Positions 1 to 60,448 of a stretch of DNA of 60,448 nt are shown one piece after another. Numbering within the stretch: position 1 is the first letter of the stretch; every line of letters starts with the position of its first letter. Under the pieces are notes generated by a model. That model was given only the letters and a program-made list of their open reading frames with translations. It had not been told where the DNA came from and did no database searches. The position numbers and the translations under genes were made by a program. The stretch covers positions 1 to 60,448 of IMG/VR virus record IMGVR_UViG_3300025099_000002, one strand, 5' to 3'. The stretch comes from a virus.

Positions 1-127
1 CGTTACCTGTCGTAACATTAACACCAACATCCGCTCCCACAAAAGTATTATCTCCACCTGTTGTAATACCTGTTCCTGTGTTGTACCCAAACATTGTATT
101 TTTACTAGCAGTTGTAACAGCATCACC
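1..127. repeat. Terminal direct repeat, left copy (circular overlap)
   Basis: The first 127 bases are identical to the last 127 (60322-60448). A repeat of exactly this length is what a k-mer assembler leaves when it closes a circle, so it is more likely an assembly overlap than a packaged terminal repeat. It lies inside a fibre gene that reads in frame across the join. Confidence 0.95.
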
Positions 128-1036
128 GGCCGCAAACCCCATAAGTGTATTTTTTGCACCAGTTGTAATTGCTCCACCTGCGGATTGTCCTATGCCAACA
201 TTATAAGATGCTGTCGTAACAGACCCTAAAGCATTAAGACCCATAGCTATATTAGATGAACCAGTTGTTATAGCGTCACCAGCTAGACCTCCGATGAGGA
301 CGTTTTCAATGCCTGTGGTTATTGCTCCACCTGCGGTATAACCAACTGCTGTGTTATACATATCAGTATTACTGTCAGGATTCATAGCTCCTAAAGCATC
401 TGCACCTACAGCAACATTTCTGTCTCCAGTAACATTAGCATCCATTGCTTTTACACCAATGGCTGTGTTACCATCTCCTGCTGCATTTAATTTTAATGCT
501 TGATAACCAAAAGCCGTGTTTTCAGAAGAGGTTGATACTGTTTTTCCTGCTTCAAAACCAACAAAAGTATTTGCATCACCAGTAGTAATCGCAGTACCTG
601 CTTCGTCACCCACAGCCACGTTGTAGTTACCGCCAGATGTTATTGAGTTACCTGCGTTGACACCTGCTCTGAAGTTAGATGTACCTAATGTACTACTAGA
701 TATGTCTGCACCAAAACTTACGTTACTTACAAATGCACCACCGTCTACTGCTGACACAGTATCAGCTACACTAAATGCATCATAGACTACTACCTCAAGT
801 ATATCATCTACTGCAGCACCAGATACCAATACAATAGATGTACCTGTAGTTGATGCGTAGTCAGTGACAGCCTTAAGCATTACACCATTTAGATATACGT
901 CAGTGTAGTTCGTATCTGTATATGTTAGCGTTACGTTACTATTGTCTGCACCACTAAAGCTAGTCTGACCTGCAGTAGCTGTGTAGTTGTACCGTGTACG
1001 TAGTCCAACACTAGGTGATTTTCCTATGTATGGCAT
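1..1036 (-). CDS. S74-type tail fibre with YadA-like repeats, N-terminal part (continues at 60321)
   Basis: This is the 5' part of a 651-residue gene cut by the ends of the window. Translation starts at the ATG complementary to 1034-1036 (MPYIGKSPSVG), a fibre N-terminus style common in marine podoviruses, and runs to base 1 with no stop. After the circular join it continues from 60321 down to a stop at 59402. The first ~100 residues look like a virion-attachment domain. From about residue 115 a 17-residue repeat of the form TTGxxNTxxGxxAGxxx begins, resembling the left-handed beta-roll of YadA-type adhesin heads. It is a paralogue of the neighbouring fibre at 57467-59398. Likely role: receptor-binding tail fibre. 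The function is inferred from repeat type and context. Confidence 0.88.
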   Translation of the reverse strand, partial: MPYIGKSPSVGLRTRYNYTATAGQTSFSGADNSNVTLTYTDTNYTDVYLNGVMLKAVTDYASTTGTSIVLVSGAAVDDILEVVVYDAFSVADTVSAVDGGAFVSNVSFGADISSSTLGTSNFRAGVNAGNSITSGGNYNVAVGDEAGTAITTGDANTFVGFEAGKTVSTSSENTAFGYQALKLNAAGDGNTAIGVKAMDANVTGDRNVAVGADALGAMNPDSNTDMYNTAVGYTAGGAITTGIENVLIGGLAGDAITTGSSNIAMGLNALGSVTTASYNVGIGQSAGGAITTGAKNTLMGFAAGDAVTTASKNTMFGYNTGTGITTGGDNTFVGADVGVNVTTGN

Positions 1037-1048
1037 TTAGTTATTCTC

Positions 1049-2089
1049 CTATTCTAACGCTGTTATTCTAGCTTCTAATTCTTGTATCGTTTTTACGAGC
1101 AATGGTACGAGTTTACTATAATCCAGACCTTGTGGATCTATCTCACCAGCTTCGTGATGTCCGTCAGGATGTACTGCGTCTTTCTCACCAGCAACCGCTT
1201 CAGGTACTATACTTGATACTTCGTGAGCTAAAAATCCATCAATCAGCGTATTAGTGTCGTCAGCTATCCAGTTAAATCGTTTTGGTTTTAGTTGTTTTAA
1301 CCTTGTAGTAGCACCTGTCATATCTACTACGTTTTCTTTAAGACGGTAATCCGAAGATGTATGATAAGCTGTAGAAGATGCACTTGTAGTAATACGACCA
1401 ACAAGTGAGCCAGTAGCGTTATCAAACTCTATAGCATTGAATCCGTTTGTACCTATTTTAATACCCATTGCTGTAGAATCAGCTTGACCTGTAATGTAAA
1501 ATAAATCTGTTGGATCGCAATTTATACCAACCTTGCCAGAACCAGCACCAGCATCAACCTTAAATAAATTTACAAGACCTGAACCTTCAACTCTAAAGTT
1601 TATATCGTGACCATCTTGATTAAACACTGTTTCAGTGGGAAGTATATCTAAACGGTTTCTATATGTTGCATTAGTTACAGTACCAAATCTTAAAATACCA
1701 TCTTCTGAGCCAGAAGTTACATCATCAATAAAGCATTGTATGCCAGCATATAGCTCAGCGTTACCAGCACTATCCCTACCCATAAAATCTAGTTGTACTA
1801 TTTCGTCATTATTTGCTGGACTAGCACTAGCTTTTTCAAATGTTATTCTCATACCATTTGCATCAGCGTTAGAATTCCTAAATCTTGAGTTTACAACATT
1901 TGCTCCAGATCCTAAGACTTCAAAAGTATCAGCAGCTTCTGCAGTTGTACCACCTATACTTACTACGTCATTCCCACCATCCACAAACAACATATTAGCA
2001 TTACCGTTAGACTCAATACGGAAGTCTACATCAGTTGAGCCTTCATTTATTACGACACCTTGTTCTTGTCTAATTGTAGTTAATGCCAT
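1049..2089 (-). CDS. Tail fibre/spike with C-terminal S74 chaperone domain (346 aa)
   Basis: The C-terminal ~100 residues are an intramolecular chaperone of the endosialidase (peptidase S74) type. They show the self-cleavage signature SDYRLKENV beginning near S246, then the usual K-x-F-N-W segment, a conserved GFLAHEV stretch and a terminal trimeric coiled coil ending in ITALE. In this family the chaperone trimerises the fibre and then cuts itself off at the serine. The N-terminal 245 residues are beta-rich and of low similarity to the other fibres here. It directly follows the 94-residue protein at 2105-2389 in the late unit. Role as a receptor-binding protein is inferred. Confidence 0.88.
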   Translation of the reverse strand: MALTTIRQEQGVVINEGSTDVDFRIESNGNANMLFVDGGNDVVSIGGTTAEAADTFEVLGSGANVVNSRFRNSNADANGMRITFEKASASPANNDEIVQLDFMGRDSAGNAELYAGIQCFIDDVTSGSEDGILRFGTVTNATYRNRLDILPTETVFNQDGHDINFRVEGSGLVNLFKVDAGAGSGKVGINCDPTDLFYITGQADSTAMGIKIGTNGFNAIEFDNATGSLVGRITTSASSTAYHTSSDYRLKENVVDMTGATTRLKQLKPKRFNWIADDTNTLIDGFLAHEVSSIVPEAVAGEKDAVHPDGHHEAGEIDPQGLDYSKLVPLLVKTIQELEARITALE

Positions 2090-2104
2090 TGTGCGTTTCC
2101 TTTA

Positions 2105-2389
2105 TTATGCATCATCTCGCTGTTTACGAGTTTTATAGTCTGACCTAGCTGTTACAAGTGCTACAAAGTCTGCTTGGTTACTAGGTATGCTATCCGTAAA
2201 GCTCTCATCATTCATGAGCTTAGTAGTCCACTCAGACTGCATACGTTTCCAGCAGTTGTTAAGTTTGCCAGTAACTGCACCGTCAATCCAAGCATCTAAG
2301 CCTGAGTTATCTGCTGCTGTGTATAGATCATTAGCGAGTATCTTTTGCTGTAAATCTGTAAGTGTTATTGTTTTAGTGTGGTTTGCCAT
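2105..2389 (-). CDS. Small conserved phage structural-region protein (94 aa)
   Basis: Short soluble protein beginning MANHTKTITLTDLQQKIL, with a central Trp-containing segment and a C-terminus rich in Arg and Asp. It recalls small proteins found between tail-fibre genes in cyanophages and other marine phages, to which I can attach no proven function. It lies between two fibre genes with short gaps. There is no signal peptide or membrane segment. Confidence 0.7.
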   Translation of the reverse strand: MANHTKTITLTDLQQKILANDLYTAADNSGLDAWIDGAVTGKLNNCWKRMQSEWTTKLMNDESFTDSIPSNQADFVALVTARSDYKTRKQRDDA

Positions 2390-2429
2390 TGTTATGTCTC
2401 CTTTATGACAGGGTTATTTCACCCGATGG

Positions 2430-3446
2430 TTAGCAAGCTAAATAGCCTGAGAAAAAAGTAGCTGTCTGAATATCTGTTTGTGCAGTACCTGAATGGTGTA
2501 CTACATTTAAAATAACAGTATCGTTAGCATCCATATCAGCAAGCATAGCCCCAGAAATAGACCAATAACCTGCATCTTGCCCAAAGTCTGGGTCTATAAT
2601 AAAATTATACGTTCTGTTACTAGTTACTAATTTTGCTTCATAATACAAAGAAGCAGAGTCTACATTTAGTAAGGTTAATTGAAAGTTTAGTTGATACTTA
2701 CCTGTAACTGGGGCAGTAAATGTGTTAGACGCAAAGTTAGAACCTACATCATATACTTCTGTACCAAAAACAACTGTAACTTGAGTACCAGTAGCAATAT
2801 TATTTTGATTGCTTGCAGGATTTACAAGAAACGCTGGTTGTTTAGGCATAGTAACATGACCATTACCATCAATAAGCATTGCATCACTAGCATTAGTCCT
2901 AAAGCTCATAGAATTAGTGCTATGAAAATATTCAATCCTACCTACATCTGGGTCTTCGTTATCACCAAACATAATAGATGTTTCATTTTCACCAAGTATC
3001 GTGATGCCTGAATAGTCTGAATTTTCTACAACTAATTCATTAGCATTACCATTTACAGATGAAGCTGCACTATCCCCAGACTTAACGTGCAATTTTCCTA
3101 ATGGAGAAGTTTCTCCAATACCTACAGCATCACTAAAAGTACCTGTAGTAGCAGCAAGTGCTGAACTAGCTGGGTGTACAACTGAGCCTATGGTTACACC
3201 TAAATAGTTAACGAAGATGTTTGCTGTACCTGTAGAGGGTGCTGCACTAAATGTAAGTGTAGTACCATTAGATACTGCGTAAGCTGCAGTGTCTTGGATA
3301 ACGCCATCTACAGATACCAATAAGTCTTGGTCTGTGCCTACTGGTCTACTTAATGTAAAGGCAGTTGTACTACCATCGCCATTAAACTGTTGTACAGTAG
3401 GTATGCTAGTAAATCTATCTGCTGGTGCGTTACCAATGTATGCCAT
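2430..3446 (-). CDS. Tail fibre-like protein (338 aa)
   Basis: The start is placed at the ATG complementary to 3444-3446 (MAYIGNAPADRF), which overlaps the stop of the upstream gene as TAATG. A start 18 codons earlier is in frame but lies inside the upstream gene. The first ~90 residues form a fibre N-terminal domain of the type seen in marine phages, with an FTLSRPVG-like segment and a short beta repeat. The C-terminal ~130 residues have the look of a C1q/TNF-like or lectin-like beta-sandwich (TGKYQLNFQLTL segment), common at fibre tips. No S74 motif is present. Likely part of the adsorption apparatus. Confidence 0.78.
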   Translation of the reverse strand: MAYIGNAPADRFTSIPTVQQFNGDGSTTAFTLSRPVGTDQDLLVSVDGVIQDTAAYAVSNGTTLTFSAAPSTGTANIFVNYLGVTIGSVVHPASSALAATTGTFSDAVGIGETSPLGKLHVKSGDSAASSVNGNANELVVENSDYSGITILGENETSIMFGDNEDPDVGRIEYFHSTNSMSFRTNASDAMLIDGNGHVTMPKQPAFLVNPASNQNNIATGTQVTVVFGTEVYDVGSNFASNTFTAPVTGKYQLNFQLTLLNVDSASLYYEAKLVTSNRTYNFIIDPDFGQDAGYWSISGAMLADMDANDTVILNVVHHSGTAQTDIQTATFFSGYLAC

Positions 3447-3811
3447 TAGGTGATCTCCATTATACTCAATGTTCCGCTTAGTTTGTCTGCTACAGAACAA
3501 TCAATCGTAATTTGATCTGTAGTTTCTAGTACCACTTTGTTACCAGACATAAGCTCTAATGCACTACTAGCAGGTATAGGTGCATCTTGAACTATAATGC
3601 TTGTACCGTTAGCGGTGTTATTAGTTACTGCTCTGTTTGCTGTATCACTTACTAGTCTAACTGTAGCTGTAACTTGAGATGTGTGTATATTAGATAATAT
3701 CAACCCCAAAACAACTGTAGTTGTACCAGAAGCAGCAGTGTACATTACATACGGTGTACCTGCACTCGCAGGTTCTGCTGCAAAGTTTACAACCTTAAAC
3801 GTGTTTGCCAT
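3446..3811 (-). CDS. Structural-region protein, beta-rich (121 aa)
   Basis: Small protein starting MANTFKVVNF, predicted mostly beta strands, with no signal peptide. Its stop codon overlaps the next gene's ATG (TAATG), indicating coupled translation with the fibre downstream. It resembles short proteins sitting beside fibre genes in marine podoviruses. A virion or fibre-assembly role is inferred from position only. Confidence 0.68.
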   Translation of the reverse strand: MANTFKVVNFAAEPASAGTPYVMYTAASGTTTVVLGLILSNIHTSQVTATVRLVSDTANRAVTNNTANGTSIIVQDAPIPASSALELMSGNKVVLETTDQITIDCSVADKLSGTLSIMEIT

Positions 3812-3826
3812 GATTTAGTTCCTTTC

Positions 3827-6724
3827 TTATCCTAGTGCAATGGCTAGGGCTGTTGCATCATCTGCTGCCGAAGTAGTGGTGGCTATGGTTCCAGCTACAC
3901 TAGGCAAGGTTAATGTTATATCAGCCGTTGATGCTGGACCGATTAATGTTACTTTATTTGTTCCGTTATCTGAGTCCTCAAAGAACTCTACAAAACCTGC
4001 TGATGTAGCTCCATTCTTAAGTGACATACCTGCATTAAATATATCTTTAGCTGTTGATGTTGATATACCTACCTGGGCAGTAGTTCCACTTATTTCTACG
4101 TTACCATTGATATCTATTAATGTAGAGTTAAGCTCAATCTCATCGTCTGCATTAATGTCTAAATCACCGTCAGCAGGTGAACCAATGTTAATGGCACTGT
4201 CACGAAACTGAACCACCATAGCTGCATTAAGAAGTATACCTGTATCTGCAACGTGTGTCAACGTTACATCTTTATCTGCACCGAACCCTAATACTGCAGC
4301 ATCGCTGTCTAATGTTAAATCATCACCTACAAGAAGATCACCGTCTATATCTACGTCACTAGAGAAGTCACCTGTAGCTGCGTCTAGTTCACCAGTAACA
4401 GTAAAGTTACGTAAACCTGTGTAGTCTTTGTTAGCGTCTAATACAACTGCCTTAGATGCAATCGCTGTACCTATTGCAGTACTACCTAAGTCTAGTGCGT
4501 TGATCTCACCTACAACTACAGTAGCTCCATCTAGTATGTTTAACTCTTCTGGTGTAGAGCTAACTTGAGTATTACTTGCTGCAGCTAGAACGGGTAGTGT
4601 ACCTGATTGGTTAGGTAAGTTAATTGTTCTGTCTGCTGTAGGATCTACAACTGTAAGTGTAGTTTCGTGGTCATCTGCAGTAGCACCTTCAAACACTACA
4701 GCGTTAGCTGCTTCCATAGTAACTGTGTCAACTTGTGTAGTTGTACCTGTTACAGTTAAGTCACCCGATATAGTTACATTGTCTGTAAATACTACATCGT
4801 CTGTTCCTGTAGGAACTCGCATAACAATAGTATCAGCATCGTTTTTAATTGTTACATCATTTGTTGAACCTTGACCTGTAAGGATAAGACCTTCAACAGA
4901 TGTGTAACCTATAGCTGCGTTATCTCCTGCTGCTGTGTCACCTGCTGGCTCTACTGTACCTGAAGTAGTAATGTTACCTGCTGCAACTACTGTACCTGAT
5001 ACATCTAAGTTACCATTTAGATCTACTGTAGTAGCAGCTAATTGTATCTCTGTATCAGCAACAATGTCTAGTTGACCATCTGTGCTAGAGTTTAAGTATA
5101 GCCCTGTATCACGGAACTGTATCTTATTGTCTGTAGCTATAGTTGTAGCAGCAGCTATGTTAACCGCACCATCAATATCAACTATGTCTAAGTTAGCTGT
5201 ACCGTCTATATCTATATCACCAGATATATCTAGTGCTGTACCTATCAGTGTCTGTGTCAGTGTTACCTGACCATTAGAAGCAATAGTTATAGCGTCTACA
5301 TCTGATGCAGATCCTATAGTCTTACCGTCACCTATGATTATGTCATCAGCAAATGTAGCAATACCAGTTACACCTAATGTGCCACTAACATCCATTGTAC
5401 CGTTAACGTCAATAGCTGTAGCGTTAAGCTCAATCTCATCTGTTGCGTTAATGTCTAAGACTGTAGCACTAGGAGCGTTAATAAACTGTGACGCATCGTT
5501 AAACTGCAGTGCCATTGTGCTGTTAAGTAACAAGCCTGTGTCAGCTACGTGTGTCAGTGTGACATCTGTATCAGCACCAAAACCTAGTACTGCAGCATCA
5601 GATAAAAGTGTAAGATCATCACCTACTGTAGCATCAGCAGACATAGTAACATTACCACTAACACTAGCAGTACCGTTTATGTCTATTGTAGTAGCTGTAA
5701 GGTCTATCTCATCTGTAGCACCTAGCGATAATACAGTAGCACTTGAGCCATGTATAAACTGTGATGCATCATTAAATTCTATTTTTCTAGTGCTGTTTAC
5801 TCTTACACCTGTGTCTGGAATATGTGTAAGTGATACGTCTTGGTCAGCACCTAAGTAGATAACTCCTGAGTCACCTAAGTAAAGATCACCGAACTCTAAG
5901 CTAGATGTACCTAGTGTAGCACCGTCAGCTACTGTAGGAACAAACGCTGTACTTGCTGATATAGTAGTACCAACTATTGTACTAGAGCCAGTTATAGCTC
6001 CAGTTACACCTAGTGTACCAGCTACAGTAGCATTAACGTCAACGTCAAGTGTATCAATGTGAGCTGTGCCATCTATAAAAATGTCACGCCATTCTTGACT
6101 GGAGCTACCTAAATCATACGTATTGTCATCGTCAGGTATAATGTGTGAGTCTACATCTGCACCAAACACAACATTGTCTGACGCACTGTCGCCTAACGTA
6201 AGTGTGCCACCATTAAATGTGGTAGTACCTGTAACTGTCGCATTACCTGCTACTGTTAAGTTACCACCTACTGCTAGGTTGCCAGATATATCAGCAGCAC
6301 CATTCATGTCTATAGTAGTAGCTGCTATCTGTATTTCTGTGTCAGCTACAAGATCTAGCTGCCCATCTGCTGAAGAGTTAATGTATATTGCTGTATCACG
6401 AAACTGTAGTTTTTCTGTAGAAGCTACGAGTATGTCATCAGAGAACTCAAAGTAGTCTTCGTCTTCCATCCACGACATTACACCGTCATTAGATTCACCG
6501 TCATACGTTACTACAATGTTTTGTCCTGATGTTCCATCACCTATAGTAATAGTTGTACCTAATAACTTAGTTATAGGACCGCCTTCTGCGGTTGTACCAT
6601 CGTGTGTGTGTCCTGAGCTTGCAGCAAAAGCAGCTAGTAGCTGGTCAAACTCGTTATTAGTGTGGTCTGCGGTAATCGTATCTCCGTCAGTGTAAGACGA
6701 TTGCCTTGTGTAAGTAGCACCCAT
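3827..6724 (-). CDS. Long modular tail fibre (965 aa)
   Basis: The N-terminus (MGATYTRQSSYTDGDT) with a GHTHDG motif near residue 38 is typical of phage fibre attachment domains. Most of the rest consists of about five copies of a module of up to 70 residues that contains a GADxDVTLTHVADTG or QFRDTxxYxNS segment, then DEIELxAT and xIDINGxxxVSG. The modules are joined by strand-rich linkers full of T, G, D and A. This suggests a long trimeric beta-fibre made by module duplication. No S74 domain is seen at the C-terminus, which ends in ATALAIALG. It abuts the tail-tube gene upstream. Confidence 0.85.
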   Translation of the reverse strand: MGATYTRQSSYTDGDTITADHTNNEFDQLLAAFAASSGHTHDGTTAEGGPITKLLGTTITIGDGTSGQNIVVTYDGESNDGVMSWMEDEDYFEFSDDILVASTEKLQFRDTAIYINSSADGQLDLVADTEIQIAATTIDMNGAADISGNLAVGGNLTVAGNATVTGTTTFNGGTLTLGDSASDNVVFGADVDSHIIPDDDNTYDLGSSSQEWRDIFIDGTAHIDTLDVDVNATVAGTLGVTGAITGSSTIVGTTISASTAFVPTVADGATLGTSSLEFGDLYLGDSGVIYLGADQDVSLTHIPDTGVRVNSTRKIEFNDASQFIHGSSATVLSLGATDEIDLTATTIDINGTASVSGNVTMSADATVGDDLTLLSDAAVLGFGADTDVTLTHVADTGLLLNSTMALQFNDASQFINAPSATVLDINATDEIELNATAIDVNGTMDVSGTLGVTGIATFADDIIIGDGKTIGSASDVDAITIASNGQVTLTQTLIGTALDISGDIDIDGTANLDIVDIDGAVNIAAATTIATDNKIQFRDTGLYLNSSTDGQLDIVADTEIQLAATTVDLNGNLDVSGTVVAAGNITTSGTVEPAGDTAAGDNAAIGYTSVEGLILTGQGSTNDVTIKNDADTIVMRVPTGTDDVVFTDNVTISGDLTVTGTTTQVDTVTMEAANAVVFEGATADDHETTLTVVDPTADRTINLPNQSGTLPVLAAASNTQVSSTPEELNILDGATVVVGEINALDLGSTAIGTAIASKAVVLDANKDYTGLRNFTVTGELDAATGDFSSDVDIDGDLLVGDDLTLDSDAAVLGFGADKDVTLTHVADTGILLNAAMVVQFRDSAINIGSPADGDLDINADDEIELNSTLIDINGNVEISGTTAQVGISTSTAKDIFNAGMSLKNGATSAGFVEFFEDSDNGTNKVTLIGPASTADITLTLPSVAGTIATTTSAADDATALAIALG

Positions 6725-32356: not shown

Positions 32357-32432
32357 ATGTAGACTTATTGATGCATTTATGGGAAAAGACTTTTGTTCTC
32401 ACGCTTGGTCATACTGGGTTACAAATAAATGA
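32271..32432 (+). CDS. Small basic protein coupled to the integrase (53 aa)
   Basis: Strong ribosome site (AAAGGAGAAGATA before ATG) and an ATGA overlap with the recombinase start. Very basic N-terminus (SKKMREKINQY; LRRKRMRNKC), then CRLIDAFMGKDFC. Size, charge and place directly before an integrase fit a recombination directionality factor, but no excisionase motif was recognised. Confidence 0.5.
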   Translation: MFLSKKMREKINQYAVAQHKLRRKRMRNKCRLIDAFMGKDFCSHAWSYWVTNK

Positions 32433-33358
32433 AACGAAAGAAGTTAGTTATATCAGAAAGTTCAACAGTTAGACAGGCGTGTGAGTTTTACTTTAGCACC
32501 CCTGCCTATCTTAAAATATCAGGTAGAAGCCAAAAAGATTATTACAACACTATGATTAAAGCGTGTAACACACCCGTGCAAAACAATAAGTTGTTCGGTG
32601 GCATACGATTAAAAGACGTTAGGTTTAAACACGCTACTCATTTATATGATACTTGGTTAGCTAACATAGGTGTCAGACAAGCTAACTTTCATCGTACTTG
32701 TATGAGTATTGTTTTTAATACTGCTATACGTAATGAAGCTATTGTATCTAATCCAATGTCTTTAGTTAAAGGCACACCAGATACGGCTCGTAAAGTTAAA
32801 TGGACAGAGAACCAAGTAAAACTATTTTTAGCTACTGCCTTTAGTGAATACAGGTGGAAAGCAATAGGCTTGATAGCTTATATGGCATATGAATGGGGTC
32901 AAAGACCTGGAGATATGCGTAATTTAAAGTGGGATACATTAAACTTAAATGAGAAAAGACTAGACTTAGAACAAAGTAAAAGAAGAGCTAATGTACACTT
33001 ACCAATTAGTGATGATCTTATAAAAATACTTAAGAAGCAGTATGAATACGTTAAAGATATTTCTGAATACGTTGCACCTCGTGTGTATCCTAGAAATGGT
33101 GGCTACTCACCGTATAATATGTCAGAGATATCTACTTTAGCTAATGAAGTTAAAGAAGAGGCAGGTCTACCTAAAGAGTTATGGATTATGGACTTAAGAC
33201 GTACAGTTATAACTGAAATGGTTGAAGCAGGAGTTGACGTTACAGGTATCATGCAAGTTAGTGGACACAGTAGTCCTGATAGCGTCACGCCTTATCTAGT
33301 TAATACTTTTCGTGGGGCATCAACAGCATTAAATAAAAGAAAGGCTAATAAAGAATGA
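32429..33358 (+). CDS. int: Tyrosine recombinase / integrase (309 aa)
   Basis: Core-binding N-terminal part (to about 110) and catalytic C-terminal domain. Catalytic residues: R159 (WGQRPGDMR), a Lys in the beta hairpin (EQSKRRANVHL), R257 (MDLRRTVI), H280 (SGHSS) and Y289 (VTPYLVNT). The usual His before LRRT is Met (M254). Family members cut and rejoin DNA at a short core site. It overlaps both neighbours by ATGA. No repressor or att site was found beside it; HMO-2011-type phages are known to carry an integrase while being isolated as lytic. Confidence 0.9.
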   Translation: MKRKKLVISESSTVRQACEFYFSTPAYLKISGRSQKDYYNTMIKACNTPVQNNKLFGGIRLKDVRFKHATHLYDTWLANIGVRQANFHRTCMSIVFNTAIRNEAIVSNPMSLVKGTPDTARKVKWTENQVKLFLATAFSEYRWKAIGLIAYMAYEWGQRPGDMRNLKWDTLNLNEKRLDLEQSKRRANVHLPISDDLIKILKKQYEYVKDISEYVAPRVYPRNGGYSPYNMSEISTLANEVKEEAGLPKELWIMDLRRTVITEMVEAGVDVTGIMQVSGHSSPDSVTPYLVNTFRGASTALNKRKANKE

Positions 33359-53209: not shown

Positions 53210-53662
53210 TTAAAAGTCCTTCTTATGTAGTCTGGCTGGTTGTTTAAATCTACGCCAGTGTACTTTAGTTTGTTTTCCGTAAAGATCCTGTTTACGTTTT
53301 CTAATGGTTTTCATCATGTGCCTCGTGTCTCCTTGCGTAGATATAAACTCGATACCCCATAATTGTTTATCTGGTGGGTTTTCAGTTTGATAGTCTACTT
53401 CCTGTAGTTCATACTTACTATTTAAAAACTTATCTGCTGTCTCTTCGTCTAACCAAGCCCAAGTAATTAATCCTACAGGTTGTTCTCCTCTATAAAAGAA
53501 CCATATTCTGTGGTACATACATGGGTACAACAAGTAGCTCTGTATTAAAGGTACGTTATACCTACGATGGTCTTTACTGTGGTTAAATAAAAACAACCCG
53601 TCTTCTATAGCTTTATGGAAATTCATTAACTGTGTTATATCATACACAGGTGTAATTGTCAA
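53210..53662 (-). CDS. HlyC-like (RTX toxin-activating) lysine acyltransferase homologue (150 aa)
   Basis: Aligns by eye with HlyC: S29 and H32 in HSKDHRRY match its catalytic SPLHR motif, PVGLITWAWL matches PVAYCSWANL, and WGIEFISTQG matches WFIDWIAPFG with E105 in place of Asp92. HlyC transfers fatty acyl groups from acyl carrier protein onto lysines of RTX toxins. Such homologues are sometimes seen in marine phages and probably modify a virion or host protein. Start is a TTG at 53662; a GTG five codons later is an alternative. Confidence 0.8.
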   Translation of the reverse strand: MTITPVYDITQLMNFHKAIEDGLFLFNHSKDHRRYNVPLIQSYLLYPCMYHRIWFFYRGEQPVGLITWAWLDEETADKFLNSKYELQEVDYQTENPPDKQLWGIEFISTQGDTRHMMKTIRKRKQDLYGKQTKVHWRRFKQPARLHKKDF

Positions 53663-53668
53663 TAAAAC

Positions 53669-54226
53669 TTAGTTGCCAACTAACGGATTATCAAGGGCTT
53701 CTTGCAATCTTCTACTTAACTTTTCTTCTAATTTAATCATACTTTCATCAATACGTTTCTCTGTATCTCGCATTGTGTCTCGTACATCTTTTTCTGTTTC
53801 TCTGTTTAGTGACTCAGTTTCTCTTATAGAGGCTGTTGTGTCTTTCTGAAGAGTATTCATAGCAGACAACATATTCTCTAGAGACGCATCAATAAGTTCT
53901 TTAGTCTTTTTAACTCGTTCTTCTGACTTCTCTACCTTATTGTCTATCTTATCTACGTAAGACTCTATGCTTAGTATGTCTTCTCTAAGGTCGTCTTTAA
54001 TGTCGCGTGTGTAATCTATAGCGTCATCCAGTTTAGACTCTATTAGTGTGTTCTTAGCTTGTATAGCGTCTGTGTCTATATTCTGTATAATCTCTTTCAT
54101 ATCCATGTAGTCTTTGTAAAACTCAAAACCACCCCATAGACCACCGCCTAATGAGCCTAGCAGAGGCAGGATAAGAAGCATCTTACCACCTTTAATCTTA
54201 GCACCTGCTACTTCTACTTCTGCCAT
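53669..54226 (-). CDS. Membrane-anchored coiled-coil protein (185 aa)
   Basis: N-terminal membrane segment (~16-36: MLLILPLLGSLGGGLWGG), then ~140 residues of coiled coil (SIESYVDKIDNKVEKSEERV and similar), ending LDNPLVGN. The single anchor plus long coil recalls i-spanin-like or tape-like proteins, but it lies in the tail/ejection group. It follows the lipoprotein at 54236-54652. Pairing of an inner-membrane coil with an outer-membrane lipoprotein would resemble a second two-gene spanin system. That pairing is inference. Confidence 0.68.
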   Translation of the reverse strand: MAEVEVAGAKIKGGKMLLILPLLGSLGGGLWGGFEFYKDYMDMKEIIQNIDTDAIQAKNTLIESKLDDAIDYTRDIKDDLREDILSIESYVDKIDNKVEKSEERVKKTKELIDASLENMLSAMNTLQKDTTASIRETESLNRETEKDVRDTMRDTEKRIDESMIKLEEKLSRRLQEALDNPLVGN

Positions 54227-54235
54227 GTTATATCC

Positions 54236-54652
54236 TTAGTTCTCAAATGAAAGACTTCTTAACTGCTTAATCTCTTGTTGTAACTTCATTACTTCTAGTT
54301 CTTTTTTCTGTAACTCTAGTTCGTACAGTCTGTTACAATCTATTCTTGACTTAGCTCTCTTACCTAGTGGTATAATAATTCTACTGTATACACCTATGTC
54401 ACCAGTCTTTTTATTGTCAGTAGATATTGTTCCACCTTGTATTAAACCTGTAACGCCAAACTCTAATTGTGTTGCTGAACCTATAGCGTTACTACAATCT
54501 AGTTCCCCTGCTCTAAACTTATCTGACTGATAACCCATACTAGAGTTAGGTAGTGATAAGTTTAATGAGTTAGACGTAGAGTCTGCAAAAGCTGTTATGA
54601 TACTACACCCAGAAATAAGCACTACTAATAGTATTAATGCTAGTGTTTTCAT
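54236..54652 (-). CDS. Lipoprotein (138 aa)
   Basis: A lipoprotein signal (MKTLALILLVVLISGC) with lipobox Cys C16 leads to a secreted part: NSLNLSLPNSSMGY and a C-terminal helix (ELQKKELEVMKLQQEIKQL). Predicted outer-membrane lipoprotein. It could be an o-spanin partner for the coiled-coil protein next to it. It overlaps the previous gene by 4 bases. Confidence 0.7.
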   Translation of the reverse strand: MKTLALILLVVLISGCSIITAFADSTSNSLNLSLPNSSMGYQSDKFRAGELDCSNAIGSATQLEFGVTGLIQGGTISTDNKKTGDIGVYSRIIIPLGKRAKSRIDCNRLYELELQKKELEVMKLQQEIKQLRSLSFEN

Positions 54653-55035
54653 TTATCTTGTTTTATCTTAGAGCATATTCTAGATGATATTAGCGTAACT
54701 TGTTCTGTACTTTTAAATACTTTAGATTCTGTACATATGTAAACTGCTTTAGCTACATCTATTGCTCTTATATATACCTCAAATAGTTTTGTTTTATTGT
54801 AACCTATCTTAATTACCTTAGACGTAGAAGCAAAAGGTAAAGCTTTCCATTTATTAGTAAAGACACCTATCTCATAATACTCTACATCGTTACGTCTATT
54901 AAATAACTTCATCTTAGCTACAAACACATTGTCTACATATGAAGGCTTTAACTTAGGGTAGGTAGGTGTCATTTCGTGTGCATTTAAAGATGTACAAAAA
55001 ACTAGACCTACAAGTAATATTATTTTGCTATACAT
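54649..55035 (-). CDS. Secreted beta-rich protein (128 aa)
   Basis: Signal peptide MYSKIILLVGLVFCTSLNAH with cleavage after NAHE-like region, then a beta-rich domain (VAKMKLFNRRNDVEYYEI; KVIKIGYNKTKLFEVYIRA) and two Cys at the C-terminal half. The pattern recalls periplasmic chaperone N-domains, but the match is weak. Coupled to its neighbours by short overlaps. Confidence 0.62.
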   Translation of the reverse strand: MYSKIILLVGLVFCTSLNAHEMTPTYPKLKPSYVDNVFVAKMKLFNRRNDVEYYEIGVFTNKWKALPFASTSKVIKIGYNKTKLFEVYIRAIDVAKAVYICTESKVFKSTEQVTLISSRICSKIKQDK

Positions 55036-55517
55036 TCTGCTTTTATTATGGCTGTGTAGTTACCTGCTGGTAGTGACTTTGTACTACCGTACTGTGCAGT
55101 TGACTCTACAGTAAACCATGTGCTACCTGCAAGTGTTAAGTTAAACTCAGTTACGTTGTTATATGTAACCTTAGCTGCTTCATATGCTGACATAGCTGCT
55201 ACAGATACCTGTCCTACTGCTGTACTACCTGTCCAAGCAACTGAGTCATTAAGTGTTGGGCTTGATGAAAAGCTGTTAGGATGTGTAAACCTGGCTTTGT
55301 AGTAGTCTGCCTGTGCTACATCTATTCTAATAGAAGCCTTTACGCCACCGTCTGCTGGTGTTGTAGTTAGCTTATATGGTAACGGATGTCCGTAGACACC
55401 TGCTGTTTCAGTCCAGACAGAACACTTGCTTTGTACTTGACCTTGTATTGGTGAGTCCACTGCTAATGCAGAAGACCCTGACATTAACAGTGCTGCTATT
55501 GCTAATCTTTTTATCAT
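55020..55517 (-). CDS. Secreted protein (165 aa)
   Basis: Signal peptide MIKRLAIAALLMSGSSALAV, then a mature beta-rich domain with a Cys near the start (QGQVQSKCSVW) and one near the end (AIIKAECIAK), likely a disulfide. Together with the adjacent secreted proteins this is an exported set encoded in the virion region. The family is unknown to me; it looks like a pilin-like or Ig-like fold. Confidence 0.62.
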   Translation of the reverse strand: MIKRLAIAALLMSGSSALAVDSPIQGQVQSKCSVWTETAGVYGHPLPYKLTTTPADGGVKASIRIDVAQADYYKARFTHPNSFSSSPTLNDSVAWTGSTAVGQVSVAAMSAYEAAKVTYNNVTEFNLTLAGSTWFTVESTAQYGSTKSLPAGNYTAIIKAECIAK

Positions 55518-55529
55518 GATATCTCCATT

Positions 55530-56426
55530 TTATTTATCATACTGTGAACGAACTAATGTTCTGTGTAAATTATCTTGTGCTAAGTTTCTTAACGCTTTAC
55601 TATTATCTTCTATAACACCATCTTGTAGTGTAATTGTTTCTTCGTATTTACCACCTTCTATAACTGTACCGTAGTAACTATCTAGTGTACCTGTAGCAGC
55701 TAACTGTTGCATCATAGCGAGTTGTTGTGTTGGGTTAGCTATTTGTTCTGCTGCACCAGCTACAGACAGTGCTTTCTCTAGTTTTAACTCTTCCTGCTCT
55801 TCTTCTTCTTTAGCTTCTTGTTCTTTCTTTTCTTCTTCTTGTTCCTCTGTCTTACGGTCTAGTTGATATTTTACCCATTCATCGTAATAAGGATCAGTTA
55901 TATCTGGTTCATTGTCTAGTAATCCATTGTCTAGTAGATATTGATACAAAGCATCTTTAAAGTCTGGACAACTAGGATCAGCTAAAGGTATAAAACAAGG
56001 ATCAAACTTGTAGTTGTACGCTATTGTTACATCACTTAGTGTTGCGTCTCCTGTTACACCTACGTTACCTTCACCCCACGATGTACCTAAAGAAGGTGTA
56101 ACTAAATCAAAACCTATCTTAGTACTACTAGGTAACTTATCCCAGTTATCGTGTCTTTCGTATATATTACCTGAAGCCTTTAAGTTTTTATTTGTAATAG
56201 ATACTGTTGCGTTTGCATCTGTTTCTTTATTTATTGTGTACTGGTGATATACACCTTGTACTTTTAACCCAGCTTCAGGTGGCAGAACATCCGTCATATT
56301 CCATCTAAATGAGTTTTTAGCTACGTTATCTGTTCTACCGTATATTAAGTCAGAGTATGAATAAGAGGGCAAGCAACAACCCACCGATAGCACCAGCACC
56401 TGTAGCGGTACTCTTAGTGTCATCAT
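55530..56426 (-). CDS. Secreted charged protein (298 aa)
   Basis: Start set at ATG 56426, with AAGGAGGAA 6-7 bases upstream; earlier in-frame start codons lie inside the upstream gene. A signal peptide (MMTLRVPLQVLVLSVGCCLP) is followed by a beta-rich part (GLKVQGVYHQYTINKETD; LGTSWGEGNVGVTGD), a CFIPLADPSCPDF motif with two Cys, a Glu-rich coiled coil (EEEKKEQEAKEEEEQEEL) and a helical end. Related layouts occur in marine phage tail regions. Overlaps the 200-residue gene by 77 bases. Confidence 0.66.
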   Translation of the reverse strand: MMTLRVPLQVLVLSVGCCLPSYSYSDLIYGRTDNVAKNSFRWNMTDVLPPEAGLKVQGVYHQYTINKETDANATVSITNKNLKASGNIYERHDNWDKLPSSTKIGFDLVTPSLGTSWGEGNVGVTGDATLSDVTIAYNYKFDPCFIPLADPSCPDFKDALYQYLLDNGLLDNEPDITDPYYDEWVKYQLDRKTEEQEEEKKEQEAKEEEEQEELKLEKALSVAGAAEQIANPTQQLAMMQQLAATGTLDSYYGTVIEGGKYEETITLQDGVIEDNSKALRNLAQDNLHRTLVRSQYDK

Positions 56427-56952
56427 CCCATTCCTCCTTCTTACCTGTTTTAGCACCAGGTATTAGATGTGCGTTATTATTCCACGCTTCTTTAGCTGGT
56501 TTACCTACAAGTCCATCGTATGGGCAAGGTGTACCTGCATTCATCATGGAATCAAATATTCTTTTGTCTTGACACATTACAGATACAGCAGCTACTTTCA
56601 TGCCCATATCGTAAAGAACCTTAGCATTCTTTAGTCTTTCACAGTTCATGTCTCTGACTGTAGCACCTGCACTTATACCTAATATCTGTGTTTGTACTGC
56701 TCCTGATACACCTACAGTACATAAGTCTGAGTTAGACATATTAATACTAGGTGACATAGCTGAAGGTGGCGGTGATTTAACTGTAGTCTCAGACTTTAAG
56801 TTAGAGTTAACTGTAGAGTTTGTGTTACTGTTTGTCTCTATACAGTTAGAATTAGTAGTGCTATCACATGGCTCACCGTATGCTTCTTTAGCCATTAATG
56901 CTATGACACCTATAAAAGCTGCCCAACATAGGTATATTAGTATTTTTCTCAC
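56350..56952 (-). CDS. Secreted/membrane protein (200 aa)
   Basis: Signal peptide or anchor (MRKILIYLCWAAFIGVIALM), an Asn/Ser/Thr linker with N-glycine-like repeats (NSNTNSTVNSNLKS), a Cys-containing region (LCTVGVSGAV, DMNCERLK, VSVMCQDK, TPCPYDG), and a C-terminal membrane helix (GAGAIGGLLLALLFIL). Two membrane passes with a Cys-rich periplasmic domain fit an envelope protein, perhaps part of DNA entry or exclusion. Function unknown. Confidence 0.65.
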   Translation of the reverse strand: MRKILIYLCWAAFIGVIALMAKEAYGEPCDSTTNSNCIETNSNTNSTVNSNLKSETTVKSPPPSAMSPSINMSNSDLCTVGVSGAVQTQILGISAGATVRDMNCERLKNAKVLYDMGMKVAAVSVMCQDKRIFDSMMNAGTPCPYDGLVGKPAKEAWNNNAHLIPGAKTGKKEEWDDDTKSTATGAGAIGGLLLALLFIL

Positions 56953-56955
56953 TAG

Positions 56956-57201
56956 TTATTCCCCATTAAATGTCATCCATACTGCACCAGCTATAAAGGT
57001 AAGAGTAGCAACAGTAAATATTTTAACTGTAGTATTCCATATAGACTTACGTGTATCTCTCCACGCATCCAGTAAAGATCTCATTTCTTGTATGTCTCTA
57101 GCTGCATTCTCATCAGTTAAACCTATGCTCTCTAAAGCACGTTTAGCTGATCTGTCTAGCATAGCCTCTAGTTCTTCTGGGCTTAACTTTAGTTCTGACA
57201 T
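56956..57201 (-). CDS. DUF6127-like membrane protein (81 aa)
   Basis: N-terminal part MSELKLSPEELEAMLDRSAK, then LESIGLTDENAARDIQEMR, LLDAWRDTRKSIW and one transmembrane helix (IFTVATLTFIAGAVWMT) at the end. This order matches DUF6127, small tail-anchored proteins of alphaproteobacterial prophages. Function not known; a holin-like role has been suggested from context in some phages, but not shown. It starts 15 bases after the stop of the 57216-57461 gene. Confidence 0.72.
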   Translation of the reverse strand: MSELKLSPEELEAMLDRSAKRALESIGLTDENAARDIQEMRSLLDAWRDTRKSIWNTTVKIFTVATLTFIAGAVWMTFNGE

Positions 57202-57215
57202 AGTAAACCCTTATA

Positions 57216-57461
57216 TTAAGATGCAGTGTAACCTTTACCTGCTGTAATTGCATTGGTGGTTGCTGTCATAGACTCGCTACCCCAGTCTGACTTAGCTTTC
57301 ATTAGCTCAAGGTGTGCTACATTTCTGTCTACACAACCTTGTCTTGCTTCTTTTGCTTCATCAGCCATACTGTTACCAGCTATTACAGCAGTAATAAGGT
57401 CTATTGAGTGACCCATCGCTGCGTAATCTTGTGCTAGTTCTTCTGTTGTTCTGTCTGCCAT
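57216..57461 (-). CDS. Small conserved phage protein (81 aa)
   Basis: MADRTTEELAQDYAAMGHSI, then a helical segment with a conserved Cys (EARQGCVDRNVAHLELM) and a Thr/Ala-rich tail ITAGKGYTAS. Similar short proteins are seen next to fibre genes in marine phages. It lies five bases downstream of the fibre gene. Function unknown. Confidence 0.66.
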   Translation of the reverse strand: MADRTTEELAQDYAAMGHSIDLITAVIAGNSMADEAKEARQGCVDRNVAHLELMKAKSDWGSESMTATTNAITAGKGYTAS

Positions 57462-57466
57462 TTTAT

Positions 57467-59398
57467 TTATCCTTCTAGTGTTGCCACTCTTGCAGTAAGT
57501 GCTTCAATTAATGCGTTCTGTTCTTGAATCGCTTTTACGAGGATTGGTACAAACTTGCTGTACTGTAGACCCATTTGTTTACCATCACCTGATGTAGATA
57601 CAGTAAGGTTTTTCTTAGCGGCAGTTGTATATCCTGCGGCTTCTTCAAGTGCTTGAACTTCTTGTGCCTTAAAGCCTATGTCCAACCAGTCTTCTTTATG
57701 TGTTCCGTCTGGAGACTGTGCGTTAAGGTCATAACCATCAGCAGTCTTATCACCATACTTGCTACGTTTATCCCACTTATATGTTACAGGTGCTAGTGCC
57801 TTAACAAAATTTAAACCTAAGTCTAAAGCTGTAAAGTCTGTCTTGTCACGTTGGTCAGAAGCTACAGTCCAGTCTACTTGGATGTGTGCGCCATCAACGT
57901 TTTCATCACCTATACATATTTTATGATTGTCATTATTTACTTCACCTCCAGGACTTCCTGACCTACCAGCATCATTTCCCAGCAAGGTATTATTACCGCC
58001 TGTAGTTAAACCTATTCCAGCAGCACTACCAACCGCAGTGTTATTATTACCAGTAGTGGCATCGTCACCAGCCTGTAATCCAATATAAGTATTTTCTGCC
58101 CCTGTGGTTACTGACGACCCTGCTTGGTCTCCAACTGCTGTGTTACTAGCAGAAGAAGTTAATGCTCCTAGTGCATTGTGACCAAGAGCCGTGTTGTTTG
58201 TTCCTGTCGTACAAGTAGTTAAAGCATTTTTCCCAAAAGCACAGTTTGTATCGCCTGTAGTAATAGCATCACCTGCTAATGCCCCAACAAGTGTGTTGTT
58301 ATCTCCTGTGGTAATTAACATTCCTGTTGTTCTACCAACGCAAGTGTTGTAACCAGCTGTGGTCATTGTTTTGCCAGCTTCTCTTCCAATGGCAACATTG
58401 TATTGACCTGTTGTAAGTGAGCCTAATGCGTTGTTACCCATTGCAACATTCTGACCGCCTGTAGTAATTGCGTCACCAGAACCTGCACCTACAAGAGTAT
58501 TTTCTGTACCTGTGGTTATAGATTTACCAGATTCTTGTCCTACAGCAGTATTATTTTCTGCGGTAGTTAAAGCGTCTAAAGCACTTTTCCCAACAGCAAC
58601 ATTGTAATTCCCAGTTGTACAGTAGTACATTGCCGCAGTTCCAACAGCAACATTATGTTGTCCAGTCGTGTTTGTAAATAAAGCATCTCTGCCGACTGCT
58701 GTGTTGTGGTCTGAAGTAGTGGTATTTCCTCCTGCTCTATTACCAATAAAAGTGTTGCTATCTCCTGTTGTCAAATCTTTACCAGCACTATGACCCACAG
58801 CGGTATTAAGTGTACCAGTCGTATTTGCGTACATTGCATCTCTACCAATAGCAGTATTACTACTTGCGGTAGTATTTGTGAATAACGCACCTTCTCCCAC
58901 CGCAGTATTTTGTGCGCCTGTTGTGGTACTAGAACCAGAGGCTTGCCCAACAAAAGTGTTTGAAGCTCCAGTTGTAACTGCATCACCAGATAAACCGCCA
59001 ACGAAGGTGTTGTTTGTCGCTGTGGTTACTTCAACCCCTGCTCTTGCTCCAACTGCTGTGTTATAAACATCTGTTGCAGATGTAAAGTTTTGATTTGCTA
59101 ATGCGGATCTACCAATTGCAACTGAATTACTACCAAGCGTATCAGCACTAAGAGATTCAGAGCCTAATGCTGTGTTTTTAGTTCCAGTAGTTATAGCATC
59201 ACCTGAGCGATAACCTAATACAGTATTCTCATCACCAGTAGTAATCGCAGTACCAGCTTCATCTCCTAATGTAACATTAAAATTACCACCACTAGCAATA
59301 CTATTTCCTGCGTTGACACCTGCCCTATAGTTGCTTGTACCCAGTGTAGTTGTAGCAGGTTGGGTACGTACTGCTGCTAAATCTCTTGACCTACTCAT
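57467..59398 (-). CDS. Tail fibre with YadA-like repeats and S74 domain (643 aa)
   Basis: After a short start (MSRSRDLAAVRTQP), about 25 repeats of 17 residues follow, pattern TTGxxNTxxGxxAGxxx, predicted left-handed beta-roll. The C-terminal 130 residues are an S74 chaperone with cleavage motif SDQRDKTDF at S514, then a YKWDKRSKYGD segment, GFKAQEVQAL and a terminal coil. Its N-terminal repeats (TLGTSNYRAGVNAGNS) closely match those of the neighbour fibre across the join, so the two arose by duplication. Likely alternative receptor-binding proteins. Confidence 0.9.
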   Translation of the reverse strand: MSRSRDLAAVRTQPATTTLGTSNYRAGVNAGNSIASGGNFNVTLGDEAGTAITTGDENTVLGYRSGDAITTGTKNTALGSESLSADTLGSNSVAIGRSALANQNFTSATDVYNTAVGARAGVEVTTATNNTFVGGLSGDAVTTGASNTFVGQASGSSTTTGAQNTAVGEGALFTNTTASSNTAIGRDAMYANTTGTLNTAVGHSAGKDLTTGDSNTFIGNRAGGNTTTSDHNTAVGRDALFTNTTGQHNVAVGTAAMYYCTTGNYNVAVGKSALDALTTAENNTAVGQESGKSITTGTENTLVGAGSGDAITTGGQNVAMGNNALGSLTTGQYNVAIGREAGKTMTTAGYNTCVGRTTGMLITTGDNNTLVGALAGDAITTGDTNCAFGKNALTTCTTGTNNTALGHNALGALTSSASNTAVGDQAGSSVTTGAENTYIGLQAGDDATTGNNNTAVGSAAGIGLTTGGNNTLLGNDAGRSGSPGGEVNNDNHKICIGDENVDGAHIQVDWTVASDQRDKTDFTALDLGLNFVKALAPVTYKWDKRSKYGDKTADGYDLNAQSPDGTHKEDWLDIGFKAQEVQALEEAAGYTTAAKKNLTVSTSGDGKQMGLQYSKFVPILVKAIQEQNALIEALTARVATLEG

Positions 59399-59401
59399 CT
59401 A

Positions 59402-60448
59402 TTATGCTCCTTCTAGTGCTGCTAGTCTGTCAGCTAGTGCCTTATTCTCTGCGGATAGTTCTTGTACTGCTTTTACTAATACAGGTATTACTGCTGCTTC
59501 ACCAACTCTTTGTTGGCTAGTAGGGTCATCATCATCCCACATACTAAAACCATCTTTAATATCGCTGTGTTTATCAATAGCTGCTTTAACTTCTTGAGCT
59601 ATAAAGCCGTGTTGAGATTTAGAGTTTTTATAAACTTCTGTAGAACCTTCTTCATAACCTTTAAAGTTTTTAGGTAAATCACCTTTGTTTTTATAATTAA
59701 AAGTTACTGGCCTAAGATCGTTGATAAAGGCTAAACCTACAGTAGCATCTTCAATATCTTTTTTAACTCTTTCATCTGATACAGTTGCCCATGTTACGTT
59801 ACCGTGTGCAGCTCTAATGTCATCATTTACTTTTCCTAAAGTTGTATATCCTGCTTCTCCAGAAACAGAGTAACCTAAAACATTAGCAGCATCACCATCT
59901 GCTGCTGCTACATTAGCTAAAGCACCAATAATCACATTTTGTTCACCAGTGGTACAGCTTTCACCTGTACTTTTACCTACAAAAGTATTATTTGGACCTG
60001 TTGTAACTGAATCACCAGCCTCAGAGCCAACAAAAGTATTATCTGCTCCAGTAGTGACAGCAGTACCAGCTTTATTACCTAAAAAGGTGTTTTCATTTCC
60101 ACTTGTTGTAGCTTTCCCTGCACGTCTGCCAACAAAAGTATTGTCGTGACCTGTCATAGTAGCACCGCCACCAGCTTCATAGCCAATAAGCACACAATCA
60201 TCTATAGTAGTTGCTGCTTTTCCAGCAGCAGTTCCCATCATAACGTTTCTTGCACCTGTGGTTAATGCTTCTCCTGTTCCACCTACTACTCCAGACTCAC
60301 TACCACCGACTAATATATTGGCGTTACCTGTCGTAACATTAACACCAACATCCGCTCCCACAAAAGTATTATCTCCACCTGTTGTAATACCTGTTCCTGT
60401 GTTGTACCCAAACATTGTATTTTTACTAGCAGTTGTAACAGCATCACC
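59402..60448 (-). CDS. S74-type tail fibre with YadA-like repeats, C-terminal part (begins at 1036)
   Basis: This is the 3' part of the 651-residue gene that starts at 1036 and crosses the circle join; bases 60322-60448 repeat 1-127. It holds more 17-residue repeats (for example TTGADNTFVGSEAGDSV) and an S74 chaperone with motif SDERVKKDI at about S527, followed by a QHGFIAQEVKAAI segment and a coiled-coil end. It is separated from the paralogue at 57467-59398 by only three bases. Function: receptor-binding fibre, inferred. Confidence 0.88.
   Translation of the reverse strand, partial: GDAVTTASKNTMFGYNTGTGITTGGDNTFVGADVGVNVTTGNANILVGGSESGVVGGTGEALTTGARNVMMGTAAGKAATTIDDCVLIGYEAGGGATMTGHDNTFVGRRAGKATTSGNENTFLGNKAGTAVTTGADNTFVGSEAGDSVTTGPNNTFVGKSTGESCTTGEQNVIIGALANVAAADGDAANVLGYSVSGEAGYTTLGKVNDDIRAAHGNVTWATVSDERVKKDIEDATVGLAFINDLRPVTFNYKNKGDLPKNFKGYEEGSTEVYKNSKSQHGFIAQEVKAAIDKHSDIKDGFSMWDDDDPTSQQRVGEAAVIPVLVKAVQELSAENKALADRLAALEGA
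60322..60448. repeat. Terminal direct repeat, right copy (circular overlap)
   Basis: Identical to bases 1-127. Removing one copy gives a circle of 60,321 bp in which the fibre gene reads through without a break (1036 plus 920 bases = 652 codons including stop). Confidence 0.95.

What the first reader, a model, noticed from the sequence alone, without database searches (positions are those of the whole stretch)
57467..60448. Tandem duplicated S74 fibres made of 17-residue adhesin-like repeats
Two adjacent genes (643 and 651 residues) share N-terminal repeats and carry about 25 or more TTGxxNTxxGxxAG units each, with different tips and chaperones. A third S74 fibre lies at 1049-2089. This redundancy suggests multiple host receptors or a diversification system by repeat recombination.
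Basis: seen in the sequence. Interest (0 to 1): 0.52.

Follow-up and report, generated by a model that had tools for sequence, protein, structure and literature searches.

The report
Two modular adhesin-like phage tail fibres
A marine bacterial virus carries two neighbouring tail-fibre genes built from repeated adhesin-like units, each ending in a self-cleaving folding domain; this is a known kind of host-recognition protein, and comparison with relatives shows its pieces being swapped between viruses.

Summary
The window is a circular phage contig (127-bp end overlap). Fibre A (651 aa) wraps its ends (1036 down to 1, then 60321 down to 59402); fibre B (643 aa) is 57467-59398. A profile finds 20 and 26 17-residue units; shuffles give 0.6. 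Both, and the repeat-free fibre at 1049-2089, end in Peptidase_S74 chaperones with the Ser-Lys dyad. Twelve fibre B repeats model as a beta-roll closest to trimeric-adhesin heads (UspA1, CbpF). Recent duplication is not supported: units are about 49% identical in DNA, the chaperones 34% in protein, and the shared N-terminal repeats recur in other phages. Relatives show modular exchange: a 98%-identical relative keeps three fibre N-termini and replaces what follows; 33 fibre pairs share chaperones at 93% DNA or more with unrelated anchors; identity falls at the autocleavage serine; two relatives carry their two tips in opposite order. Repeat-number change is real but slow: 27 of 27 near-identical pairs agree, one 97-99% pair differs by exactly 216 bp. 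Multiple receptors remain inferred. Repeat S74 fibres with YadA-like regions and variable C-termini are published in marine phages: a new member of a known kind.

The parts
57467..59398 (-). fibre B, 643 aa; starts MSRSRDLA, no large anchor domain, 26 17-residue units (57956-59293), S74 chaperone from Ser514 (57470-57859)
59402..60448 (-). fibre A, C-terminal part: later repeats and S74 chaperone from Ser527 (59405-59779)
1..1036 (-). fibre A, N-terminal part: anchor (689-1036, residues 1-116) and first repeats; continues across the circular join, 651 aa in all, 20 units
1..127 (.). terminal direct repeat, identical to 60322-60448; shows that the contig is circular
60322..60448 (.). second copy of the 127-bp terminal repeat
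1049..2089 (-). third S74 fibre, 346 aa, no 17-residue repeats; first ~40 codons kept in relative L007, rest replaced
2430..3500 (-). fibre with N-terminal anchor and C1q-type tip, 356 aa from the listed TTG; in L007 the same anchor carries an S74 tip (551 aa)
3827..6724 (-). 965-aa main fibre (MGATYTRQSS anchor), 99.2% identical in L007; no S74 domain in the window
57216..57461 (-). 81-aa ORF after fibre B; shared with the B chaperone as one stretch in L084/L085 (89% DNA)

Best explanation
Fibres A and B are two receptor-binding tail fibres (or side fibres) of an HMO-2011-like marine phage. Each is probably a homotrimer: an N-terminal piece docks it to the virion, the 17-residue repeats stack as a beta-roll like the head of a trimeric adhesin, and the C-terminal S74 chaperone drives trimerisation and then cuts itself off at a serine (Ser527 in A, Ser514 in B), leaving the roll as the exposed binding surface. 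The genes sit in a host-recognition island in which anchors, shafts and chaperones are exchanged between phages, so the pair is a mosaic drawn from a shared pool of fibre parts rather than a fresh duplication. Repeat number changes occasionally by whole units through recombination inside the shaft. Shown by computation: domain content, repeats, predicted folds, dyad, anchor/tip exchange in relatives. Inferred: trimer, cleavage, virion position, receptor binding.
For: S74 over the Pfam cut-off in all three fibres; Ser-Lys dyad at +5 (as described in PMC8326128, passages seen). Repeat model (pLDDT 74.8, pTM 0.69) aligns best to UspA1 3pr7 (Z 16.6, 179 aligned, rmsd 2.0) and CbpF (Z 16.4), above LbH enzymes at 13-14. 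Chaperone model (pLDDT 87.1) matches MyRF ICA 7dc3 and phage chaperone 3gw6 (Foldseek probability 1.00; Z 9.1 and 7.9). PHROG tail spike family phrog_4636 at 1.7e-58 and 5.1e-98. L007: 98% DNA over 5.85 kb, anchors of three fibres kept, tips replaced. Of 5893 fibre pairs with any 80% DNA match, 33 share the chaperone at 93% or more with no 80% match in the anchor, and the upstream 1.5 kb is unshared in 26 of the 26 pairs where it could be measured; 19 share the anchor at 93% or more with no 80% match in the chaperone. Chaperone synonymous divergence (0.32-0.69) is below that of ordinary neighbour genes (1.28 to saturated) in the 5 of 10 loci where both could be compared. Among pairs chosen for alike chaperones and unlike shafts, identity steps up at the cleavage serine (135 pairs B-type, 22 pairs A-type). 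Tips in swapped order in L320 and L322.
Against: No virion, binding or cleavage data. Foldseek gives no match at E 0.001 or better for either model, and beta-solenoids align to each other easily; the monomer model cannot show a trimer. Pfam has no hit in the repeats. The step at the serine is partly built in by choosing pairs with alike chaperones, and purifying selection on the chaperone adds to it; A-type chaperones show a synonymous plateau near 0.5 that suggests some codon constraint. Many of the 33 pairs are near-copies of the same event. Fibre B lacks a recognisable docking domain, so how it reaches the virion is unknown.
Confidence: 0.8

Rival explanations
1. A and B arose by recent tandem duplication of one gene inside this phage lineage and then diverged.
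For: Adjacent, same direction, 3-bp spacer; 36% overall protein identity and alike N-terminal caps, one 45-bp stretch at 89% DNA.
Against: Repeat units average 48.7% DNA identity between A and B, the same as within A (48.4%) and B (50.2%); chaperones 34% identical and belonging to two large classes each found in many phages; cap of the partner ranks 40th of 47 and 17th of 47; L165 lacks both fibres where flanking genes are shared.
Confidence: 0.08
2. A dedicated fast diversification system: repeat number varies by slippage or recombination so that one phage population presents many fibre lengths and surfaces.
For: Repeat counts range from 12 to 68 among fibres of the two main chaperone classes; L110/L113 share shaft and chaperone at 97-99% but differ by one exact 216-bp block; L354/L360 and L330/L346 have replaced shaft middles with indels of which several are multiples of 51 bp.
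Against: 27 of 27 pairs at 99.7% DNA or more have equal counts and no gaps (many are re-assemblies of one virus); no tandem array found in A or B by TRF; longest exact internal repeat 16-17 bp.
Confidence: 0.1
3. Targeted mutagenesis by a diversity-generating retroelement.
For: Variable receptor-binding protein in a phage.
Against: No reverse transcriptase match in the window, while the same search finds one in 3 of 14 control genomes; variation is spread over all units and exchanged as blocks.
Confidence: 0.01
4. Invertible-segment switching of tips (Gin/Cin type).
For: Tips appear in opposite order in L320 and L322; the window has a tyrosine integrase.
Against: Genes point the same way and no inverted repeat pair of 18 nt or more lies in 57000-60448; the single 18-nt pair in 1-3600 is 89% complementary and looks like chance.
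Confidence: 0.02

Closest known systems
YadA-like, S74-containing pelagiphage tail fibre of Mizuno et al. 2014 (PMC3909814; abstract, section 12 and passages seen)
   Same: Marine phage tail fibre with a YadA-like (3S6L_A) region and an S74 domain; conserved N-terminus, variable C-terminal part that under-recruits metagenomic reads
   Different: Described as one long fibre; here two stand-alone repeat fibres lie in tandem, one with hardly any anchor, and exchange is seen in assembled relatives rather than in read recruitment
S74 / intramolecular chaperone fibres: K1F endosialidase (3gw6), T5 pb1 (4uw8; PMC4690869 passages seen), MyRF ICA (7dc3; PMC8326128 passages seen)
   Same: C-terminal self-cleaving chaperone with Ser-Lys dyad and C-terminal helix
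   Different: Shaft is a 17-residue adhesin-like roll instead of a triple beta-helix or bullet-shaped domain
Trimeric autotransporter adhesin heads (UspA1 3pr7, CbpF 9gh5, BpaC 7o23, YadA 1p9h)
   Same: Predicted beta-roll fold
   Different: Phage protein, 17-residue unit, no autotransporter membrane anchor, no Pfam match in the repeats
Receptor-binding protein mosaicism (PMC10684548 passages seen; PMC10579305 abstract and Discussion seen)
   Same: Exchange of anchors, tips and chaperone domains between phages
   Different: Those works do not, in the parts I saw, report a boundary at the cleavage serine or tip order swapped between tandem fibres

Membership tests
Peptidase_S74 / intramolecular chaperone fibres | C-terminal match to PF13884 over the curated cut-off | tested here: met
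   A 50 bits, B 34.9, third fibre 37.3, cut-off 22
Peptidase_S74 / intramolecular chaperone fibres | Ser-Lys dyad, lysine five residues after the cleavage serine | tested here: met
   SDERVK in A, SDQRDK in B, SDYRLK in the third fibre (dyad positions from PMC8326128)
Peptidase_S74 / intramolecular chaperone fibres | ICA fold with C-terminal helix | tested here: met
   model of fibre B only: helix 217-246, matches 7dc3, 3gw6, 4uw8
Peptidase_S74 / intramolecular chaperone fibres | autocleavage and trimerisation | not testable with these tools
   needs expressed protein
YadA-like trimeric adhesin heads | beta-roll fold | tested here: met
   Z 16.6 to 3pr7 over 179 residues; LbH enzymes follow at Z 13-14, so the match is not exclusive
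YadA-like trimeric adhesin heads | Pfam sequence match of the repeats | tested here: not met
   no family at E up to 1 for the window's 12-repeat stretch; only unrelated weak rows for five relatives
YadA-like trimeric adhesin heads | autotransporter membrane anchor | tested here: not met
   only S74 found in A and B; hence not filed as a member, only as folding like one
HMO-2011-like phages | homologous tail and capsid gene block | tested here: inconclusive
   6725-8446 is 49.7% identical to HMO-2011 over its whole length; other genes and gene order were not compared systematically (annotation of HMO-2011 seen)
Diversity-generating retroelement target | reverse transcriptase in the genome | tested here: not met
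   PF00078 absent from the window
Phase-variable tandem repeat gene | near-identical DNA repeat units | tested here: not met
   maximum unit identity 72.5%, no TRF array in A or B

The most novel reading that the evidence does not exclude
The disposable self-cleaving chaperone is the interchange standard of a shared pool of fibre shafts: crossovers fall at or near the cleavage serine and in the conserved N-terminal cap, so phages can trade shafts without breaking trimer assembly, and tandem fibre genes act as slots that accept any shaft-chaperone cassette, with unlike chaperones in the two slots keeping two alike shafts from forming mixed trimers.
Probability: 0.25. Interest if true: 0.62.

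Novelty: new member of a known kind. Interest (0 to 1): 0.36.

Why it matters
It places an abundant, mostly uncultured kind of marine phage fibre in a testable frame: which part is exchanged, where the boundary lies, and how fast repeat number changes. If the chaperone really is the common currency of exchange, its sequence class could predict which fibres can be traded between phages, and two-fibre phages would be natural tests of how a virus keeps alike trimers apart.

Tried and rejected
Orthogonal chaperones: I asked whether fibres in one contig avoid alike chaperones. In the first set (26 dereplicated loci, 40 pairs) no pair exceeded 0.55 identity and 2 were in the same class against 5.1 expected, P 0.077; for repeat-fibre pairs 1 of 9 was same-class. 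In the larger set (52 loci, 83 pairs) 4 pairs reach 0.6 against 7.6 expected, P 0.09, with counter-examples L512 (0.74), L525 (0.70), L516 (0.69) and L486 (0.60). So this is a trend only and not claimed.

Synonymous constraint as the sole reason for chaperone conservation: rejected for B-type chaperones, whose synonymous differences saturate (0.79) at 60-70% protein identity; not rejected for A-type (plateau 0.52). In B-type the chaperone has fewer synonymous differences than the shaft in only 751 of 1653 pairs overall, so the signal is confined to pairs with alike chaperones.

Host genomes: one scan of genome contigs with fibre B found 22 pattern matches but no relative. Sequence search of solved structures with fibre B: no match. 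DNA search of phage records with 57000-60448: no match. Inverted repeats and reverse transcriptase. Paper search for repeat number in tail fibres: no paper held all terms. Searches behind any statement about print; I do not claim that the exchange pattern is unpublished.

Cautions: loci were fetched by likeness to the window's fibres or to L322 and L007 fibres, so frequencies of chaperone classes are not those of the ocean. L320 and L322 are single assemblies and a chimera is not excluded. Two weak profile hits in the anchor of A were dropped from the count of 20.

Full report
Anatomy. The window has an exact 127-bp direct repeat at its ends and is therefore a circular phage contig of 60,321 bp (the record is a virus contig). 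The finding's first gene (B) is complete at 57467-59398. The spacer between A's stop and B's start is 3 bp. An iterated 17-column profile finds 20 units in A and 26 in B, spaced 17 residues apart with only four small insertions in all (4, 7 and 1 residues in A, 4 in B); shuffles of the same regions give 0.6 on average. The asparagine and glycine positions carry the most information and the positions after TTG and after the glycine the least.

Domains and fold. Pfam finds S74 in A, B and the 346-aa fibre, all over the cut-off, and the three serines have a lysine at +5, as in the dyad described for MyRF and endoNF (PMC8326128, passages). An AlphaFold2 model of 12 repeats of B, on a gap-free 50-sequence alignment, has one short strand per unit (pLDDT 74.8, pTM 0.69). 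Foldseek gives nothing significant, but VIA-align ranks trimeric adhesin heads first: UspA1 Z 16.6, CbpF 16.4, then left-handed beta-helix enzymes at 13-14 and BpaC at 13.5. The C-terminal model (pLDDT 87.1) matches MyRF ICA and phage chaperones. So the fold-level reading 'adhesin-like' is supported by prediction; sequence families do not reach it, and I do not file it as a YadA family member.

Relatives. The adjacent tail gene 6725-8446 is 49.7% identical to HMO-2011. Relatives came from seven of the eight IMG/VR scans that used window proteins or fibres of L322 and L007 (in all). In the closest informative one, L007, 5.85 kb of upstream tail genes are 98% identical, and then each of three fibre genes keeps its start and loses its end: the C1q-tipped 356-aa fibre becomes a 551-aa S74 fibre, the 346-aa S74 fibre becomes a 358-aa fibre with another S74 domain, and fibre A keeps about 160 codons, breaking off inside the first repeats. 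In L165, genes homologous to 53945-57201 (85%) lie about 0.35 kb from a gene whose end matches the 346-aa fibre, so A and B are absent there. B-type chaperones of up to 97.8% protein identity sit on quite different N-termini. After dereplication, 126 complete S74 fibres fall into 36 anchor and 17 chaperone clusters; of 754 pairs with chaperones at least 80% identical, 472 have anchors under 35%; of 233 pairs with anchors at least 80%, 74 have chaperones under 35% (the sample was drawn by likeness, so these are not natural frequencies).

Recent exchange. Among 367 complete S74 fibres, 33 pairs (26 fibres) share the chaperone at 93% DNA or more without any 80% match in the first 150 bp; the upstream 1.5 kb is unshared in all 26 pairs where it could be measured. 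Nineteen pairs (28 fibres) show the converse, among them the window and L007. Several pairs are copies of one event. In comparisons with the window, the B chaperone has synonymous divergence 0.32-0.69 where ordinary neighbours have 1.28 or more: L085, L097, L025, L108 and L261, that is 5 of the 10 loci with a B chaperone in that call; the other five had no ordinary neighbour to compare. Right-anchored profiles of pairs with alike chaperones and unlike shafts rise from about 0.4-0.7 protein identity before position -10 to 0.97-0.99 at the serine, in both classes. This is selected for by design in the chaperone itself; the place of the step is not.

Tandem slots. Window, L320, L322 and L063 each hold one A-type and one B-type repeat fibre. 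L320 and L322 share the same two anchors in the same order, but the shaft-chaperone parts are exchanged: the end of gene 1 of L320 matches the end of gene 2 of L322 at 85%, and the end of gene 2 of L320 matches the end of gene 1 of L322 at 92%, with anchors at 89-95%. L063 joins A-type to an MTRTRN start and B-type to another anchor, the opposite of the window. A general rule that co-resident chaperones must differ is not established.

Repeat number. Of 33 well-aligned fibre pairs, 27 are at 99.7% or more and all have equal counts without gaps; the six diverged pairs (four independent comparisons) differ. L110 and L113 have different anchors (50-70%), share the following shaft at 97.2%, then differ by exactly 216 bp, then continue at 99.4% to the end of the gene; 216 bp is also the strongest self-similarity lag of L110's shaft. 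This is a clean unit gain or loss. The window's own fibres have lag 51 and no long exact repeats, so they are not set up for slippage.

Comparison with what is known. Mizuno et al. 2014 (PMC3909814; abstract, section 12 and passages seen) show a marine tail fibre with a YadA-like region and an S74 domain, whose C-terminal part under-recruits, and C1q fibres that do the same. Mosaic receptor-binding proteins, including the intramolecular chaperone with different partners, are documented (PMC10684548, passages), and sharing of fibre and chaperone between distant Alteromonas phages too (PMC10579305, abstract and Discussion). T5 work reports that the chaperone masks the binding site until it is cut (PMC4690869, passages). 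The window's fibres therefore belong to a known kind. The tandem pairing, the boundary at the serine and the swapped order are details that I did not meet in the parts I read.

Verdict. Observation confirmed with corrected extent and counts; interpretation partly supported. Interest 0.36.

Noticed in passing
53210-53662 (-): 150-aa protein matching PF02794 (HlyC, RTX toxin acyltransferase family) at 2.4e-13, next to a 798-aa protein; pelagiphage HTVC112P has a gene annotated with the same family just before its tail protein and repeat fibre. Possibly an acyltransferase for a virion protein; no toxin gene was seen.
   Followed up: partly
2430-3500 (-): Fibre with a C1q-type tip whose anchor carries an S74 tip in the 98% relative L007: two unrelated tip types on one anchor.
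   Followed up: yes
57216-57461 (-): 81-aa ORF after fibre B, with synonymous and non-synonymous divergence to L085 both about 0.09, while the chaperone beside it is 97% conserved; may be a fibre-linked accessory protein.
   Followed up: partly
32429-33358 (+): Tyrosine integrase (PHROG match) in a genome without tRNA genes; suggests a temperate or formerly temperate phage.
   Followed up: no
L110, L135: Fibre shafts of relatives with a 216-bp (72-residue) higher-order repeat made of four units; absent from the window's fibres.
   Followed up: partly
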